A DNA stretch of 64,000 nucleotides, from the NCBI GenBank assembly GCA_030649935.1, contig JAUSFN010000015.1, positions 1 to 64,000 on the forward strand, read 5' to 3'. This DNA comes from Candidatus Planktophila sp. Lineage in GTDB: Bacteria > Actinomycetota > Actinomycetes > Nanopelagicales > Nanopelagicaceae. The position numbers were made by a program, and so were the translations under genes. How positions within the stretch are numbered: position 1 is the stretch's first letter; each line of letters begins with the position of its first letter. The notes beneath the pieces are model-generated. The model was not told where the DNA came from, did not search any database, and saw only the letters and a program-made list of their open reading frames with translations. This document shows, one piece after another, positions 31,610-40,027 of the stretch.

Positions 31610-32860
31610 ATGCAGTACCAAGCACGGATCGTTGATTCAGAGCTGAAAACACTCATGAAATCCAGTGGCGCAGTTTTGATCGAAGGAGCTAAGGCAGTTG
31701 GTAAAACACAGAGTGCAAGTAGGTTAGCAAAGAGCCATATCTATCTTGATATAGATAAGGATGCGCAAGAAACCGCGAAAATCGATCCCTCTTTGATTTT
31801 AATCGGGTTAGCGCCGCTCTTGATCGATGAATGGCAGATCGTGCCAGAGTTATGGAATCACGTGCGAAGGGAGATCGACCAACGCGAGAGTTTTGGGCAG
31901 TTCATTCTTACGGGATCGGCAACTCCAGCCGATGATGTGACCCGCCACAGTGGAGCTGGACGTTTTTCAAGGCTGCGTATGAGACCAATGACTTTATATG
32001 AAATGGGTCAAAGCACTGGAGATATCTCACTTGAAAAATTATTTAAAGGTGGCGAACCAAAAGCCGGCGATTCAGGAATGACGTTAATTAACCTGATTGA
32101 TCGAATTTGTATTGGAGGCTGGCCAAAATTTGTCACTTTAGAAATTAACGAAGCAAGGAACGCAATGAGATCCTATTTGAACGAGATTATTCGCACAGAT
32201 ATACCAATGTTGAGCGGTAAAATTCATAACCCTACAAAACTTGAACGTACAATTCAGTCTCTCGCGCGCAACATTGGAACTCCAGCAAAAGTAGAAACTA
32301 TCGCGAGAGATACTGGCGGTTCAGAGGCTCAGATTGATCGATTAACTATCACGCGCTACTTAGAAACCTTAGAACAACTTATGATTATTGAAGATCTTCC
32401 TGCTTGGAGGCCAGAGTTAAGATCAAGAGCCACATTGAGGAGCGCTCCTACCCGCCATTTTGTTGATCCATCATTAGCTATTGCGGCATTGAAAGCTTCT
32501 CCCGGGCAACTAATTAAAGATCCAAATTTCCTTGGCTTCCTATTCGAAAGCCTAGTGATTCGCGATCTTCGCGTCTTCATGCAACATATTGGAGGAAAAC
32601 TTTCTCACTATCGAGATAGCGAAGACCTTGAAGTCGATGTTATTTTAGAGAGTGACGATGACAAATGGACAGCAATTGAAATCAAACTTGGAACTGGGAG
32701 AATTGACGAAGCAGCCGCCAACTTACTCAAATTTGCTTCGAAAGTTAATACCAAGATTCATGGTGCCCCAACTTTCTTGGCCGTCATAACTGGGACCGGG
32801 TATGGATATCGACGAAGCGATGGTGTTTTTGTTATACCGATCGGAAATTTAAAGCCATAA
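31610..32860 (+). CDS. AAA_14 / DUF4143 ATPase with C-terminal PD-(D/E)xK-like domain
   Basis: 416 aa. Walker A in LIEGAKAVGKTQSASRLA, Walker B in PLLIDEWQIVPELW, sensor ILTGSATPADD. The DUF4143 winged region covers about residues 190-330 (SYLNEIIRTDIPMLSG, FLGFLFESLVIRDLR). The C-terminus has LEVDVIL...WTAIEIKLG, which resembles the D...ExK core of PD-(D/E)xK nucleases. Function of the family is not established; many members are scattered, mobile genes. GGGAG precedes the ATG at 31610. The 23-bp palindrome array upstream suggests tight repression, yet no separate regulator lies beside it. It interrupts the usual comEA-leuS neighbourhood, so it was probably acquired. Confidence 0.9.
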   Translation: MQYQARIVDSELKTLMKSSGAVLIEGAKAVGKTQSASRLAKSHIYLDIDKDAQETAKIDPSLILIGLAPLLIDEWQIVPELWNHVRREIDQRESFGQFILTGSATPADDVTRHSGAGRFSRLRMRPMTLYEMGQSTGDISLEKLFKGGEPKAGDSGMTLINLIDRICIGGWPKFVTLEINEARNAMRSYLNEIIRTDIPMLSGKIHNPTKLERTIQSLARNIGTPAKVETIARDTGGSEAQIDRLTITRYLETLEQLMIIEDLPAWRPELRSRATLRSAPTRHFVDPSLAIAALKASPGQLIKDPNFLGFLFESLVIRDLRVFMQHIGGKLSHYRDSEDLEVDVILESDDDKWTAIEIKLGTGRIDEAAANLLKFASKVNTKIHGAPTFLAVITGTGYGYRRSDGVFVIPIGNLKP

Positions 32861-35345: not shown

Positions 35346-35401
35346 GTGCATAGGTTACAGGGGAATTAGGTATTGCTTTCAGACGTTTTTCCAAGCCAGC
35401 T

Positions 35402-35908
35402 CTACTGGATACTTATCTTCTCGAGTTTCGCCAAGCTGGCGGTCATAGATTCAATCAATGAGTTATTTCCATTTATCCATGCTCCGCCATCACGTAAGAG
35501 ATCATCGGAGAGTGCGCTGCAATCAAAGATTTCTGTAACAACTGTTGCATCATCGTCTTCAGAGGTCAAGACATATCCCCAGCGATAGCCCGCGGGAATA
35601 CCGATTTTGGATGGATCATTTCCCTCTGCCCGAGAGATGTCTCCTGGAGCAGGTTCCCAAAATATACGTCTAGAAGGTTCGAACTCGACTACATGATTAA
35701 GAATGAGGTAGTCATCTCCGAGACGATGCATCTTCATCATGAAACTTTCTCCCACTTTTGTGATTGAACCCTCGTGATTCGTGCCACAAAGCATTCCTGA
35801 ACCGTCGAAATCCATATGTCGGTTTGGGTTTGCAAGAATTTCAAAAATCAATTCGGCGGGTGCTTCGATTCGCCGTGAAATTTCAAGTCTTTTGTTTTTC
35901 GGATTCAT
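35402..35908 (-). CDS. SRPBCC-fold (START/Bet v1-like) protein
   Basis: 168 aa from the ATG at 35908, preceded by AGAGGGAAG. The N-terminus RLEISRRIEAPAELIFEILANPNRHMDFDGSG is the usual first strand and helix of polyketide-cyclase/SRPBCC proteins. WGYVLTSEDDDATVVTEIFD and the long C-terminal helix LIESMTASLAKLEKI complete the fold. These proteins bind hydrophobic ligands or act as aromatase/cyclases; no specific role can be assigned. It lies at the leuS-proximal border of the accessory segment. Confidence 0.8.
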   Translation of the reverse strand: MNPKNKRLEISRRIEAPAELIFEILANPNRHMDFDGSGMLCGTNHEGSITKVGESFMMKMHRLGDDYLILNHVVEFEPSRRIFWEPAPGDISRAEGNDPSKIGIPAGYRWGYVLTSEDDDATVVTEIFDCSALSDDLLRDGGAWINGNNSLIESMTASLAKLEKISIQ

Positions 35909-35977
35909 TAGTGACTTCCCTCTCACTTTTATTGTAGTTTCACCTGATGGAGTGTGTCTTAACTATATTTAAGAAAA

Positions 35978-36406
35978 ATGGTGGCCCTTTCCACTGCTGA
36001 CACAAACAAATGGGCCACGCTTCTTAACAGGGGTCATTCAACCCCGGAACCCCAAGTTACAAGATTCGATTATGAACGAACTGGACCAATAAGGCAACGA
36101 CAACGACGACTATCCGAAGCTCAAGCACTTCTTATGGCTGATAAGTATCAGGCTGGGGCTACTGTCTATCAGCTCGCCCAGGAGTTCGGTATTTCTCGCC
36201 AGACAGTTTCGGGACGGCTTAAAAAGGTAGGTGCCAAAATGCGAGGAAGATCGCCAGACAATGAACTCATTGACTCAATGGTCGGTCTCTACGAATCAGG
36301 GTATTCCCTTGCGGCAGTCGGAAATCGCGTAGGAACCTCACCCAGAACAGTGCATCGCTATAACCGACTCCGTGGTGTTCAAATGAGAGATTCTCATGGT
36401 CGATAG
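35978..36406 (+). CDS. Double helix-turn-helix protein (copy 1)
   Basis: 142 aa. Two successive HTH units: about residues 48-80 (ADKYQAGATVYQLAQEFGIS, RQTVSGRLKKVG) and 95-130 (MVGLYESGYSLAAVGNRVGT, SPRTVHRYNRLRG). It ends QMRDSHGR. The style is that of resolvase/transposase DNA-binding tails (HTH_38/HTH_7-like), without a catalytic domain. A related gene with the same layout and an RMRDPHGR ending lies at 37539. Such stand-alone HTH proteins often accompany recombinases in actinobacteria, but no recombinase is present here. Confidence 0.75.
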   Translation: MVALSTADTNKWATLLNRGHSTPEPQVTRFDYERTGPIRQRQRRLSEAQALLMADKYQAGATVYQLAQEFGISRQTVSGRLKKVGAKMRGRSPDNELIDSMVGLYESGYSLAAVGNRVGTSPRTVHRYNRLRGVQMRDSHGR

Positions 36407-36467
36407 CCCTACATCAACATATGAACTTTGATTCATCGTAATATGACGATTATTCCTTTATTATTCG

Positions 36468-37154
36468 ATGGATATGTCACATTCGATAGAGCAGACACCA
36501 TGCGAATTAATCTTCGATCTTGATGGGACGTTAACTGATCCGGCGCTCGGATTTGTCCATTCCGTAAACTTTTCACTTGAATCACATGGGATAAGTCCGG
36601 TTGAAGAGGACGACCTAAAGAAGTTTATTGGCCCGCCGTTAGATGGCGCCTTCCGAGAGATCCTACATTTAGACCAAGATAAGGACGTCAGTAGCTTTGT
36701 AAGCAAATATCGTGAGCGGTATTCAGAGGTGGGATTCTCAGAGAACATTTTGTACGATGGAATTCCGGATCTCTTGGTAGCACTGCGGGGACTTGGCTTA
36801 AGGCTAGGAGTTTGCACCTCCAAGCGAGTCGACTTTGCTGAAAGGATCCTCACTCTCTTCGATATTCGTCAACACTTTGAGTTTGTTAATGGAGCAGAAG
36901 TAGGTGTCAAGAAGAGCAGTCAGTTGAAAGAACTTATGGATCAAAGTTTTATTGATACGCATTCGATAATGATTGGTGACCGGCATGTTGATATCGAGGC
37001 AGCTAAAGCGAATTCAATGAGATCGGTTGGCGTTCTTTACGGATATGGCTCGAAACAAGAAATCGAAGAAGCTCATCCTGAATGGATTGCGATAAATCCA
37101 AAAGCTCTCTTGAACATTTTCGTGGATCTAACCGCAAAAGCTGCAAAACTTTAA
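36468..37154 (+). CDS. HAD-superfamily phosphatase, phosphoglycolate phosphatase-like
   Basis: 228 aa. Motif I FDLDGTLTDPALG with both catalytic aspartates, motif II threonine in GVCTSKRVDFAERIL, and motif III/IV SIMIGDRHVDIEAAKANSMRSVGVLYGYG. The cap domain between motifs I and II is the helical C1 type used by Gph-like enzymes. Probable phosphomonoesterase, with 2-phosphoglycolate or a nucleotide as candidate substrate. The region 36407-36467 upstream has an AT-rich stretch and a small inverted repeat ATCGT/ACGAT. Confidence 0.88.
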   Translation: MDMSHSIEQTPCELIFDLDGTLTDPALGFVHSVNFSLESHGISPVEEDDLKKFIGPPLDGAFREILHLDQDKDVSSFVSKYRERYSEVGFSENILYDGIPDLLVALRGLGLRLGVCTSKRVDFAERILTLFDIRQHFEFVNGAEVGVKKSSQLKELMDQSFIDTHSIMIGDRHVDIEAAKANSMRSVGVLYGYGSKQEIEEAHPEWIAINPKALLNIFVDLTAKAAKL

Positions 37155-37193
37155 TTTCCACAGGTTGTGACGAGGAAAAGAATTATCGAATGA

Positions 37194-37325
37194 ATTTCCA
37201 TTCTAATTCTCAGTAACCTTAGTATTCCTATTCCACGGCATAAAGAGTTGGCTGATTTACTTGCGATGCGAATCATGAAACAATTTCAACCAGTCCTAGG
37301 TGAAAGATGGTGGCACAATGATTAA
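37194..37325 (+). pseudogene. hicA toxin remnant
   Basis: The frame opens after TGA 37191 and ends TAA 37323-37325, without a proper start. It encodes IPIPRHKELADLLAMRIMKQ, which resembles the C-terminal part of HicA toxins (strand ending in PRHKEL followed by the last helix, where intact proteins read roughly GTLRSILKQ). The N-terminal half, with the double-stranded RNA-binding core, is not recognisable. Its stop overlaps the hicB start by 8 bp, as expected for a former hicAB operon. Confidence 0.55.
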
Positions 37326-37539
37326 GACTACATATAGAGCCAACGTCGCTAAGGATGGCGCATTTTGGCTTATTCAAATTCCATCCCTAGAAAATGTTTT
37401 CACTCAAGCTCGCAACCTTGATGAGATTGAATCCATGACACGGGACGTAATCTCGCTGATGCTCGACATCCCTTCAGATTCCTTTGATCTTGAATTCAAT
37501 TTCGACTCCCAAGAGGAATCTCTATCTAAAACGCTTTGA
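37318..37539 (+). CDS. hicB: HicB-family antitoxin
   Basis: 73 aa from the ATG at 37318. It shows the compact HicB fold: YRANVAKDGAFWLIQIPSLE, FTQARNLDEIESMTRDVISL, then IPSDSFDLEFNFD. This short actinobacterial version has no C-terminal DNA-binding domain. HicB normally neutralises the RNase HicA. Here only a remnant of hicA is seen immediately upstream, so this may be an orphan antitoxin or one retained against another HicA. Its stop overlaps the next start by one base (TGATG). Confidence 0.8.
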   Translation: MIKTTYRANVAKDGAFWLIQIPSLENVFTQARNLDEIESMTRDVISLMLDIPSDSFDLEFNFDSQEESLSKTL

Positions 37540-38084
37540 TGGCACACTTAGCTTGTAGTGGGCGTGTTCGAGGTGCCTTTCGAATACTCACGTTGGGCCA
37601 TTATATTTTTAGTCGAATTTTTTTACGTAACAATTTTTTGGTGGGGGTACTGCGAAACTACTGCAATCACAATTTGGCAATTCGTCAACTTGATGAGCTG
37701 CTAGTGCTTGAGGCTTCTTCAGCCCCAACCGAGAGGTTTACTGCTCGGGTCATCCCTGTTCAAGTCCGAAAACTCACACTAGAGCAGATTGATGAACTTT
37801 GTTCATTTAAACAGAGTGGCCAATCGTTGCCTAGGCTGGCTACTCTCTACGGCATTCACCGAGGCACGGTCAAGGACCATCTGCGACGAGCTGGCCTCGC
37901 AATCCGGCCAGGTAATCAGGCGAAGTTGAGCGATGAAGATAAGGATGAGATCGCCAGGCACTACGAGGCTGGGCTCTCGATCCGCAAGCTCTCACTACAG
38001 TTCAGCGTCACGGACAACCCAGTACACAACGCATTGAAGGAGCATGGAGTCAGGATGCGAGATCCTCACGGCCGCGTTCTCTAG
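37539..38084 (+). CDS. Double helix-turn-helix protein (copy 2)
   Basis: 181 aa if started at the ATG coupled to hicB; the first ~55 residues are unlike the rest and the true start may be an internal GTG/TTG near 37640. The recognisable part begins RQLDELLVLEASS and contains two HTH units: LTLEQIDELCSFKQSGQSLP to GTVKDHLRRAGL, then LSDEDKDEIARHYEAGLSIR to PVHNALKEHG. It ends RMRDPHGRVL, parallel to the protein at 35978. The RNYC-N-LAIRQLDELL lead-in resembles DNA-binding accessories found next to serine recombinases. It overlaps the convergent pseudogene by 35 bp. Confidence 0.7.
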   Translation: MAHLACSGRVRGAFRILTLGHYIFSRIFLRNNFLVGVLRNYCNHNLAIRQLDELLVLEASSAPTERFTARVIPVQVRKLTLEQIDELCSFKQSGQSLPRLATLYGIHRGTVKDHLRRAGLAIRPGNQAKLSDEDKDEIARHYEAGLSIRKLSLQFSVTDNPVHNALKEHGVRMRDPHGRVL

Positions 38085-38468
38085 CAATCTCGATCAAGAA
38101 CTTCGCCATAGCTTTCGGATCAATGTTCGGGTTGACCTGGCTGAGGACGCGGACTTCGTAGGGCGCACCCTTCTTTCGAGTGTTCGGTGTGGTGTGATCC
38201 GGTATTCCTCGAGTCGATTCTTGAAGAACGCGAGTTTGGCGAACGACTTGTTGGCTCGATGCGGCAGTGATGGATGAGCTCTGGGGACTGTCGCTCGATG
38301 AGCAAGGAGCTCGTGGTCGGACAGGTGCTTCATGAACTCGAAGTAGCTGTGGCGTGTCCACAGTTCGGCAGGGCTGATCATGATGAACGCTCCCCCGGAT
38401 TCAGCGAACCATTCGGCCTTAAGTTGATGATGTTGAATCAGGTAGTTGATGTTAGTACGTCTTGTCAT
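38050..38468 (-). pseudogene. Frameshifted conserved hypothetical gene
   Basis: Frame 1 from ATG 38468 encodes a protein-like sequence: TRRTNINYLIQHHQLKAEWF, SGGAFIMISPAELWTRHSYF, then LPHRANKSFAKLAFFKNRLE. After about 38200 it turns into low-quality Arg/Ser-rich sequence. The other frame then becomes sensible: NTRKKGAPYEVRVLSQVNPN and DPKAMAKFLIEIARERGRED, ending at 38050. A single one-base deletion near 38170-38205 explains both. I do not know its function. No slippery heptamer is seen, so this is decay or a sequence error. Confidence 0.6.
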
Positions 38469-38531
38469 AGTGACAGAAGACAATGAAGAGCTAACCGCTG
38501 TTCGTCAATCGTCAGCGGCGCGAGCCTTGAG

Positions 38532-39113
38532 CTATTGCATCAGACGGAACCAGTCTTGAAGTGACAGCCTCAAGCGCAAGACTTCGTCCTCAGTCAGGTT
38601 TGAACAATGGGCAATTGGCCCGCGCAGCAGGTTCAGTCTTCCCAATACAGACTTGACCCCTTTGCGGTTGTTAAAGGTGTCGCTAAAAGCATCCCAATTG
38701 CTCTCAATAATTACGCCCAACTCACCGAACGTCGTGTAGTCGATCTGTTCTTCTGATCTGGTTGACATTGCGGCATCCCGTTCACGTTGCGCATTGTTTG
38801 CCACGTTGTCACGCACTTCCTGAGGTACCGACGACGCCCACCAATTCTCTCCATGGGCCAAAAGCAATGCATCGCTGACAGTGTCCCGAATCCAATTTTC
38901 GAGTGAGTAAAAGACTTCGTAGTAGGCGGACATCTCTTTTGCTGTTTGCCGAATTGCTGCTGGAAACTGCGGGTAGAAGATGTCATCGTTTGTGCCAACT
39001 GGCTGTGCCTCAGGAAGTATCTTCACGCCGTGATTCTGTTCGATGGCAACCAGGTCGGCATTAAGCAGTTCTCTGTTCAGATGAAAAACTTTGACCGCGT
39101 TGAGATCGGTCAC
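38532..39113 (-). CDS. HEPN-domain protein (Swt1-type), putative RNase
   Basis: 193 aa. The C-terminal ~120 residues are an all-helical HEPN domain, apparently of the Swt1 type: AYYEVFYSLENWIRDTVSDA near the middle and the active-site motif RGPIAH (Arg164-x4-His169) before the last helix. RxxxxH is the catalytic motif of HEPN RNases in toxin-antitoxin, Abi and CRISPR effectors. The N-terminal ~60 residues are separate. The GTG start at 39113 overlaps the stop of the DUF5343 gene as GTGA. Gene order (partner first, HEPN second) fits a two-gene toxin or defence unit, but this role is inferred. Confidence 0.8.
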   Translation of the reverse strand: MTDLNAVKVFHLNRELLNADLVAIEQNHGVKILPEAQPVGTNDDIFYPQFPAAIRQTAKEMSAYYEVFYSLENWIRDTVSDALLLAHGENWWASSVPQEVRDNVANNAQRERDAAMSTRSEEQIDYTTFGELGVIIESNWDAFSDTFNNRKGVKSVLGRLNLLRGPIAHCSNLTEDEVLRLRLSLQDWFRLMQ

Positions 39114-39751
39114 TGGAGGAGATTCTCCTTTAGTGACTTGAAGATTGCGTTGAAGACGGCTTGATCAGATGTGTCGGGGAGATTTAAATTGATCGTGTAG
39201 GACAGGCCTAAGGGGAACCCACTACCGCTAGTTGAGTTGCGAGGTGGAGCTTCGGGCATTGATTTCCTCTGAGGGTCGTCCTCACTAACTGGTGTAGTCG
39301 TTTCAACTGCCGTAATCTCATCAAGTTCGAAGTTTGCAAAGGCCTTGAGTGCATTGAATGTTCCAACAATTGCCCCGATGGTCTTCGACTCTTTAGACAG
39401 ACCAGTCGTCTCCATTATGAGCCCTTGGAGACCTTTGGCGTCCAATGCATGCACGAACTCATTGCGCTTGTAAAGTTCGGGGTAGCCGTTCCGAATGGCT
39501 TGCGCCATTGCTTGCTGAGAAGTTGCGTCGTTACGGAACTGGCCATACAGAGGAGTGGGCGCACCGTCTGAAGAAATCAGCCCGAGGCGCTTCGCAAGCG
39601 GGATAAAGGGAGTTGCACTTCCACCCGTGAATCCAAGGACAGTCCCCAGATAATCCTGCGAAAACCGCTCAGGTGTTTTCGCATCTTTGATCTTGTTAAG
39701 AATCTTTGTGACGTTGCCATACGCATTCATGAACGGTGGATAGTCGGCCAT
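39110..39751 (-). CDS. DUF5343-domain protein, partner of the HEPN gene
   Basis: 213 aa. The DUF5343 pattern is seen over about residues 1-145: YPPFMNAYGNVTKILNKIKD, TPERFSQDYLGTVLG, then KRLGLISSDGAPTPLYGQFR and YPELYKRN, a winged-helix-like region. A proline/serine-rich linker (SEDDPQRKSMPEAPPRNSTS) joins a short C-terminal piece with a beta-strand LSYTINLNLPD. Such a tail could bind the partner. It has a full-consensus AAGGAGGT ribosome-binding site four bases before the ATG, stronger than most genes here. Function of DUF5343 is not established; the coupled HEPN protein points to control of, or target sensing for, an RNase. Confidence 0.8.
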   Translation of the reverse strand: MADYPPFMNAYGNVTKILNKIKDAKTPERFSQDYLGTVLGFTGGSATPFIPLAKRLGLISSDGAPTPLYGQFRNDATSQQAMAQAIRNGYPELYKRNEFVHALDAKGLQGLIMETTGLSKESKTIGAIVGTFNALKAFANFELDEITAVETTTPVSEDDPQRKSMPEAPPRNSTSGSGFPLGLSYTINLNLPDTSDQAVFNAIFKSLKENLLQ

Positions 39752-39958
39752 TTTTACCTCCTTGGTTAGTTGAGCTTCATTATGAACTCTTGATAAGGAT
39801 TTGCAAGGTTAAGAAAAATGCCTGCGAATCGGTACATCTCACAGAGGTGACTAAATCGCCGAATTCATGTACTGATGTTAGGTGTCCTTCGGGGACTAAA
39901 AACAAGTAACAGGGGTGCATACCGGCATGCTCAATGCTGACTCAGATACTACCATCAC

Positions 39959-39991
39959 AAAAAGAGGCCGCACCGGTACAGTACGACCTCT
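39959..39991 (-). terminator. Intrinsic terminator after tRNA-Ala
   Basis: Minus strand: AGAGGTCG, 12-base loop, CGGCCTCT (one G-U), then TTTTTG. It is 37 bp past the tRNA-Ala CCA end and suits the tRNA transcript. The rest of 39752-39958, between the DUF5343 gene and this site, shows no convincing gene, integrase or tRNA 3'-end duplication. Confidence 0.75.
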
Positions 39992-40027
39992 GTTACTTTT
40001 GTACTTTTTAGTACGTATGTCCGGATT

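What the first reader, a model, noticed from the sequence alone, without database searches (positions are those of the whole stretch)
38532..39751. Coupled DUF5343-HEPN gene pair: candidate undescribed RNase-based toxin or defence unit
The two genes overlap by GTGA, the first has an unusually perfect AAGGAGGT ribosome-binding site, and the second keeps the HEPN RNase motif RGPIAH. They lie in an accessory segment with TA debris next to tRNA-Ala. The upstream partner has a winged-helix-like body, a disordered linker and a small beta tail suited to binding the HEPN protein. HEPN toxins with a small partner gene are common in defence; I know of no described mechanism for this pairing.
Basis: partly seen in the sequence, partly recalled or inferred. 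Interest (0 to 1): 0.68.

Follow-up and report, generated by a model that had tools for sequence, protein, structure and literature searches.

The report
RNase-like gene with its control partner
Two overlapping bacterial genes encode a probable RNA-cutting toxin and the small protein that probably controls it; they always travel together and already appear, untested, in a catalogue of candidate anti-virus systems, but the control protein turns out to be shared by several unrelated toxin families.

Summary
The pair is real. A 213-aa DUF5343 protein (PF17278, E 6.5e-45) overlaps by GTGA a 193-aa Swt1-like HEPN protein (PF18731, E 1.1e-12) with motif RGPIAH. It is not an undescribed pairing: PADLOC-DB lists it as two-gene phage-defence candidate PDC-M34 (A 1.3e-48, B 2.7e-35). 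No paper in the held library names it or gives it a function. The pair is a mobile accessory unit. It lies in a 4.7-kb insert between tRNA-Ala and leuS, a variable site in the genus, and no other of the 60 congener genomes searched has a DUF5343. In two other phyla all six strong matches to this HEPN lie beside a DUF5343 gene; R and H of RxxxxH are invariant in 27/27; the two proteins co-evolve (r 0.96). New here: DUF5343 proteins also precede three other HEPN or HEPN-like classes that the catalogue's second model misses. The most conserved part of DUF5343 is its C-terminal 34-residue tail, whose sequence type follows the HEPN class and which is absent where no HEPN follows. Best reading: DUF5343 restrains the HEPN RNase through its tail, like a toxin-antitoxin or abortive-infection unit. 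Neutralisation, RNase activity, defence and trigger are inferred.

The parts
39110..39751 (-). DUF5343 gene, 213 aa; proposed controller/antitoxin (PDC-M34A)
   Evidence: PF17278 6.5e-45; PDLC04589 1.3e-48; structure
39323..39736 (-). DUF5343 helical, winged-helix-like body
   Evidence: PF17278 match; pLDDT about 97; no significant PDB match
39116..39217 (-). DUF5343 C-terminal tail, residues 179-212 (YTINLNLP...VFNAIFKSLKENL), proposed HEPN-binding element
   Evidence: most conserved segment; type follows the HEPN class; helix 197-211 predicted
38532..39113 (-). Swt1-like HEPN gene, 193 aa; proposed RNase toxin/effector (PDC-M34B)
   Evidence: PF18731 1.1e-12; PDLC04592 2.7e-35; best PDB match PbAbiF, prob 0.90, E 0.55
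38607..38624 (-). RxxxxH motif RGPIAH (HEPN residues 164-169)
   Evidence: R164 and H169 invariant in 27/27 aligned homologues
39110..39113 (-). GTGA overlap (stop of DUF5343, start of HEPN)
   Evidence: overlapping or nearly abutting in almost all homologues
39756..39763 (-). AAGGAGGT ribosome-binding site of the DUF5343 gene
   Evidence: not conserved in relatives
35352..40027 (.). 4.7-kb accessory insert between tRNA-Ala and leuS that carries the pair
   Evidence: tRNA-Ala and leuS are adjacent in many congeners; others carry a 0.95-kb gene, one a different cargo of at least 11 kb

Best explanation
A two-gene toxin-antitoxin-like or abortive-infection unit. The HEPN protein is a dimeric, metal-independent endoribonuclease that uses R164 and H169. 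DUF5343 is made first from the same transcript and holds the HEPN in check; its 34-residue C-terminal tail docks on the HEPN, its disordered linker tethers it, and its conserved helical body receives the triggering signal. When the body senses infection or stress, or DUF5343 is lost, the HEPN cuts RNA and stops growth. Shown: the coupling, co-inheritance, retained motif, architecture, mobility, tail conservation and its match to HEPN class. Inferred: binding, inhibition, RNase activity, trigger and anti-phage role.
For: HEPN follows DUF5343 in 16 of 17 GTDB loci; in the 17th (L015) an IS3 element cuts the HEPN after about 30 codons while DUF5343 stays intact. All six strong HEPN matches in 249 Pseudomonadota and 199 Acidobacteriota genomes have DUF5343. 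R and H are invariant in 27/27. Distance matrices correlate at r 0.96; the best of 2000 permutations is 0.42. Tail pairwise identity 0.83, body 0.57, linker 0.11. A tail profile made only from Swt1-type pairs scores 68-77 bits with Swt1 partners, 20-33 with RNECAH partners, 24-33 with three of four Ymh partners (3.9 with the fourth), 0-5 with DUF4145-like partners, and at most 0.3 or nothing where no HEPN follows. Only DUF and HEPN recur in the neighbourhoods. Seven viral contigs carry the pair; one checked has integrase, primase and terminase. The HEPN model's best PDB match is the Abi protein PbAbiF. PADLOC lists the pair as PDC-M34.
Against: No palindromic operator upstream of DUF5343, as an autoregulating antitoxin would often have. 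The DUF5343 body has no significant PDB match, so DNA binding is unsupported. Defence-gene enrichment nearby is not shown. No complex could be modelled. Low-scoring DUF5343 relatives in Acidobacteriota lack a HEPN partner, so the body has other uses. The HEPN Foldseek match is weak by E-value (0.55).
Confidence: 0.6

Rival explanations
1. Sensor-effector pair. DUF5343 is an activating recognition subunit, not an antitoxin: the two proteins form a silent complex, and DUF5343 binding a phage or nucleic-acid cue switches the HEPN on. HEPN alone is inactive.
For: The body is strongly conserved and not obviously a DNA-binding repressor; no operator is seen; one body family is used with several effector classes; the unit occurs on prophage-like contigs.
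Against: Nothing tells activation from inhibition. Gene order (small partner first, overlapping), HEPN never found without DUF5343 in the sample, and a natural HEPN disruption that leaves DUF5343 intact (L015) lean towards neutralisation, weakly.
Confidence: 0.25
2. An RNA-processing or stress-response module without a defence role: a HEPN RNase that matures or degrades host RNA under DUF5343 control.
For: No demonstrated enrichment of defence genes nearby; some HEPN families serve host RNA processing (PMC3710099).
Against: Patchy distribution (1 of 61 genomes in the genus; 10 of 398 Pseudomonadota above cut-off), a variable insertion site and viral carriage are those of conflict systems, not housekeeping.
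Confidence: 0.1
3. A passively carried, non-functional remnant in this small-genome host.
For: Neighbouring frames 38050-38483 look like a broken gene (inference).
Against: Both frames are intact, full-length and keep the conserved residues.
Confidence: 0.05

Closest known systems
PDC-M34 (PADLOC-DB phage-defence candidate, genes M34A and M34B)
   Same: Both window proteins match over nearly their full length, adjacent and in the same order.
   Different: PDC-M34 is only a computational candidate. Its A model covers all DUF5343 variants tested, but its B model covers only the Swt1-like HEPN; pairs with RNECAH, Ymh and DUF4145-like partners fall outside it.
HEPN-MNT type II toxin-antitoxin systems
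   Same: Small HEPN RNase with a small neighbouring controller gene.
   Different: No nucleotidyltransferase: the partner is DUF5343. In HEPN-MNT the controller AMPylates the HEPN (Songailiene et al. 2020, as titled in the reference list of PMC12988326).
Abi2/AbiF/AbiD (HEPN abortive infection)
   Same: Same 2013 grouping 'Abi2/Swt1' (PMC3710099); best PDB match of the HEPN model is PbAbiF.
   Different: AbiF is bound by a non-coding RNA (entry title); here the partner is a protein and no known RNA family lies beside the pair apart from the tRNA.
Swt1-like HEPN proteins (Anantharaman et al. 2013, PMC3710099)
   Same: Same Pfam family PF18731.
   Different: The Swt1-like contexts in the table passages read are fusions to PIN, AAA, helicase, ParB and other domains; a DUF5343 partner gene does not appear there. 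The whole paper was not read.

Membership tests
PDC-M34 | M34A and M34B proteins both present, adjacent, same strand | tested here: met
   PDLC04589 1.3e-48 and PDLC04592 2.7e-35, overlapping genes
PDC-M34 | Antiviral activity | not testable with these tools
   Candidate only; a 2026 paper says PDCs remain unvalidated (PMC12988326)
HEPN superfamily, Swt1-like | Match to PF18731 above curated cut-off | tested here: met
   48.6 bits against 27.5
HEPN superfamily, Swt1-like | RxxxxH catalytic motif | tested here: met
   RGPIAH; R and H invariant in 27/27
HEPN superfamily, Swt1-like | HEPN helical fold | tested here: inconclusive
   All-helical model pLDDT 87.6; best PDB match PbAbiF prob 0.90, TM 0.45, E 0.55
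HEPN superfamily, Swt1-like | Endoribonuclease activity | not testable with these tools
   Needs an assay
Type II toxin-antitoxin system | Two small, coupled genes inherited together | tested here: met
Type II toxin-antitoxin system | Toxin not found without antitoxin | tested here: met
   6 of 6 strong HEPN matches in two phyla have DUF5343; small sample
Type II toxin-antitoxin system | Autoregulatory operator at the promoter | tested here: inconclusive
   No inverted repeat beyond chance upstream in the window and most of 20 homologues; direct repeats not tested
Type II toxin-antitoxin system | Toxicity of one gene, neutralised by direct binding of the other | not testable with these tools
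   Complex prediction not available; needs experiment
HEPN-MNT toxin-antitoxin system | Minimal nucleotidyltransferase partner | tested here: not met
   Only DUF5343 found in the partner
AbiF/Abi2 | Abi_2 domain and partner non-coding RNA | tested here: not met
   Abi_2 not hit by the window protein; no RNA family beside the pair except the tRNA; an unknown RNA is not excluded

The most novel reading that the evidence does not exclude
DUF5343 is a general, modular HEPN controller: one conserved sensing body joined by a disposable linker to a swappable 34-residue tail that specifies which of at least four HEPN or HEPN-like classes (Swt1-like, Ymh, DUF4145-like, RNECAH) it restrains. That would make PDC-M34 one branch of a larger effector-swapping defence or toxin-antitoxin superfamily that present models miss.
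Probability: 0.45. Interest if true: 0.6.

Novelty: new member of a known kind. Interest (0 to 1): 0.42.

Why it matters
The pair itself is a catalogued but untested candidate. If the controller reading is right, a single unstudied domain, DUF5343, silences several unrelated RNase toxins through an exchangeable tail. That gives an immediate way to find missed systems, since the tail profile is specific, and to test with simple tail swaps how one sensor is wired to different killers.

Tried and rejected
Undescribed pairing: rejected. Defence-island enrichment: the apparent 66 to 24 excess is mostly one multi-hit ATPase in L009, so not claimed. Autoregulatory palindrome: none. Duplicated tRNA 3' end (att site) at the far edge of the insert: none. 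A fold for the DUF5343 body: no PDB match. Homology between HEPN classes by profile comparison: not detectable. Plasmid and phage records: no match. Viral structure library: nothing. A natural DUF5343-HEPN fusion that would allow complex modelling: none seen in the fetched loci.

Full report
What is there. On the minus strand, a 213-aa gene (39751..39110) and a 193-aa gene (39113..38532) overlap by GTGA. The first is DUF5343 (PF17278, E 6.5e-45); the second is a Swt1-like HEPN protein (PF18731, 48.6 bits against a cut-off of 27.5) with RGPIAH at residues 164-169. A perfect AAGGAGGT precedes the first gene, but relatives have ordinary ribosome-binding sites, so it carries no special meaning. 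The 'TA debris' could not be confirmed: the 79-aa ORF at 37300 reaches UPF0150 only at E 0.23.

It is already catalogued. PADLOC-DB holds both genes as the two-gene phage-defence candidate PDC-M34 (M34A 1.3e-48, M34B 2.7e-35). The held papers contain no mention of DUF5343 or PDC-M34. A 2026 study states that PDCs come from a guilt-by-embedding screen and remain unvalidated (PMC12988326). So the pairing is known to a database; its function is not known.

Where it sits. In many congeners tRNA-Ala is followed directly by leuS. Others carry a single gene of about 0.95 kb between them, one (G010) carries an unrelated cargo of at least 11 kb, and the window carries a 4.7-kb insert, 35352-40027, with locally raised GC. 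DUF5343 occurs in the window genome and in none of the 60 other genus members searched. No copy of the tRNA 3' end was found at the other edge. The pair is therefore probably recent accessory cargo at a variable site.

Coupling. Among 17 GTDB loci found by similarity to DUF5343, 16 have the HEPN gene next, nearly always overlapping. In the 17th, L015, the HEPN reading frame starts normally and is cut by an IS3 element after about 30 codons, with DUF5343 intact. All seven viral contigs found carry both genes; for one of them, L136, integrase, primase and terminase were identified. Sampling by family across three phyla gave 20 genomes with DUF5343 above about 50 bits (with the window genome); 19 have a HEPN or HEPN-like gene next, and the exception, G329, lacks the tail. 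In the reverse direction, all six strong HEPN matches in 249 Pseudomonadota and 199 Acidobacteriota genomes are in genomes and contigs with DUF5343; three weaker ones are longer proteins of other kinds. Distance matrices of 26 pairs correlate at 0.96 against at most 0.42 in 2000 permutations. No third gene recurs.

What differs from the catalogue. DUF5343 also precedes three other classes of small protein: Ymh (PF09509, RNPRGH or RNPVTH), a DUF4145-like class (DUF4145 at E 0.0004-0.002, motif degenerate, GDKSSH), and a class with RNECAH (L023 reaches DUF4145 at 3e-4; HEPN membership probable but not proven). Ymh and DUF4145 are listed HEPN families (PMC3710099). PADLOC's M34A model recognises all these DUF5343 proteins, while M34B matches none of these partners. 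Profile comparison finds no detectable homology between the partner classes, so the effector has been exchanged rather than merely diverged, or has diverged beyond recognition.

The tail. The predicted DUF5343 structure has a confident helical body (pLDDT about 97; helices 12-23, 32-38, 49-56 and short strands consistent with a winged-helix arrangement), a disordered stretch and a C-terminal helix. The body has no significant match among solved structures. The tail (residues 179-212) is the most conserved part: 0.83 mean pairwise identity against 0.57 for the body and 0.11 for the linker. A tail profile built only from Swt1-type pairs scores 68-77 bits in proteins with Swt1 partners, 20-33 with RNECAH partners, 24-33 with three of four Ymh partners (3.9 for the fourth), 0-5 with DUF4145-like partners, and at most 0.3 or no score in the 17 DUF5343 relatives with no HEPN next to them. 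Searching 299 genomes with the full tail profile returned only DUF5343-like proteins: six followed by a HEPN or HEPN-like gene and one (L126) followed by an IS3-type transposase. The tail is therefore the best candidate for the HEPN-binding element. That is an inference; no complex was modelled.

How it probably works. HEPN RNases act as dimers through RxxxxH (established for the superfamily). The R and H are invariant here, and the HEPN model's nearest solved structure is the abortive-infection protein PbAbiF (prob 0.90, E 0.55). Gene order, overlap, the small size of the partner, the absence of HEPN-only genomes in the sample and the natural HEPN knock-out with DUF5343 kept all lean towards DUF5343 restraining the HEPN, with release on infection or stress. 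The main rival, in which DUF5343 is an activating sensor, cannot be excluded. Against a classical autoregulated toxin-antitoxin locus: no operator palindrome was found.

What is not shown. Defence-island residence: the neighbours' excess of PADLOC families over same-contig controls (66 against 24) collapses when one multi-hit ATPase contributing 38 families is counted once. RNase activity, binding, toxicity and phage protection need experiments. Verdict: a real, conserved, probably toxin-like pair, a new member of an existing but untested candidate family, with an effector-swapping pattern, not found described in the papers searched, as its most interesting aspect.

Noticed in passing
window 35352-40027; L027-L055, L142, L143: The tRNA-Ala / leuS junction is a variable insertion site in this genus: empty, a 0.95-kb gene, a 4.7-kb insert here, and a different cargo of at least 11 kb in G010.
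   Followed up: partly
L015:5983-7906: An IS3-type element interrupts the HEPN gene after about 30 codons while the DUF5343 gene is intact; L126 also has an IS3-type transposase right after a DUF5343 variant.
   Followed up: partly
L090, L091, L096-L098, L100-L105 (Acidobacteriota): Low-scoring DUF5343 relatives with a different C-terminal end (YQIVINLQVTKYTSEKD) are mostly followed by a conserved non-HEPN protein of about 155 aa (EKNFLEK..PGLSGYR), suggesting a second, unrelated role for this body.
   Followed up: no
window 38050-38483 (-): Overlapping minus-strand frames just downstream of the HEPN look like one gene broken by a frameshift; no Pfam match.
   Followed up: no
window 35978-36406 and 37536-38084 (+): Two small proteins with repeated resolvase-type helix-turn-helix domains lie in the same insert.
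   Followed up: no
window 31610-32860 (+): AAA_14 / DUF4143 ATPase gene directly beyond leuS.
   Followed up: no
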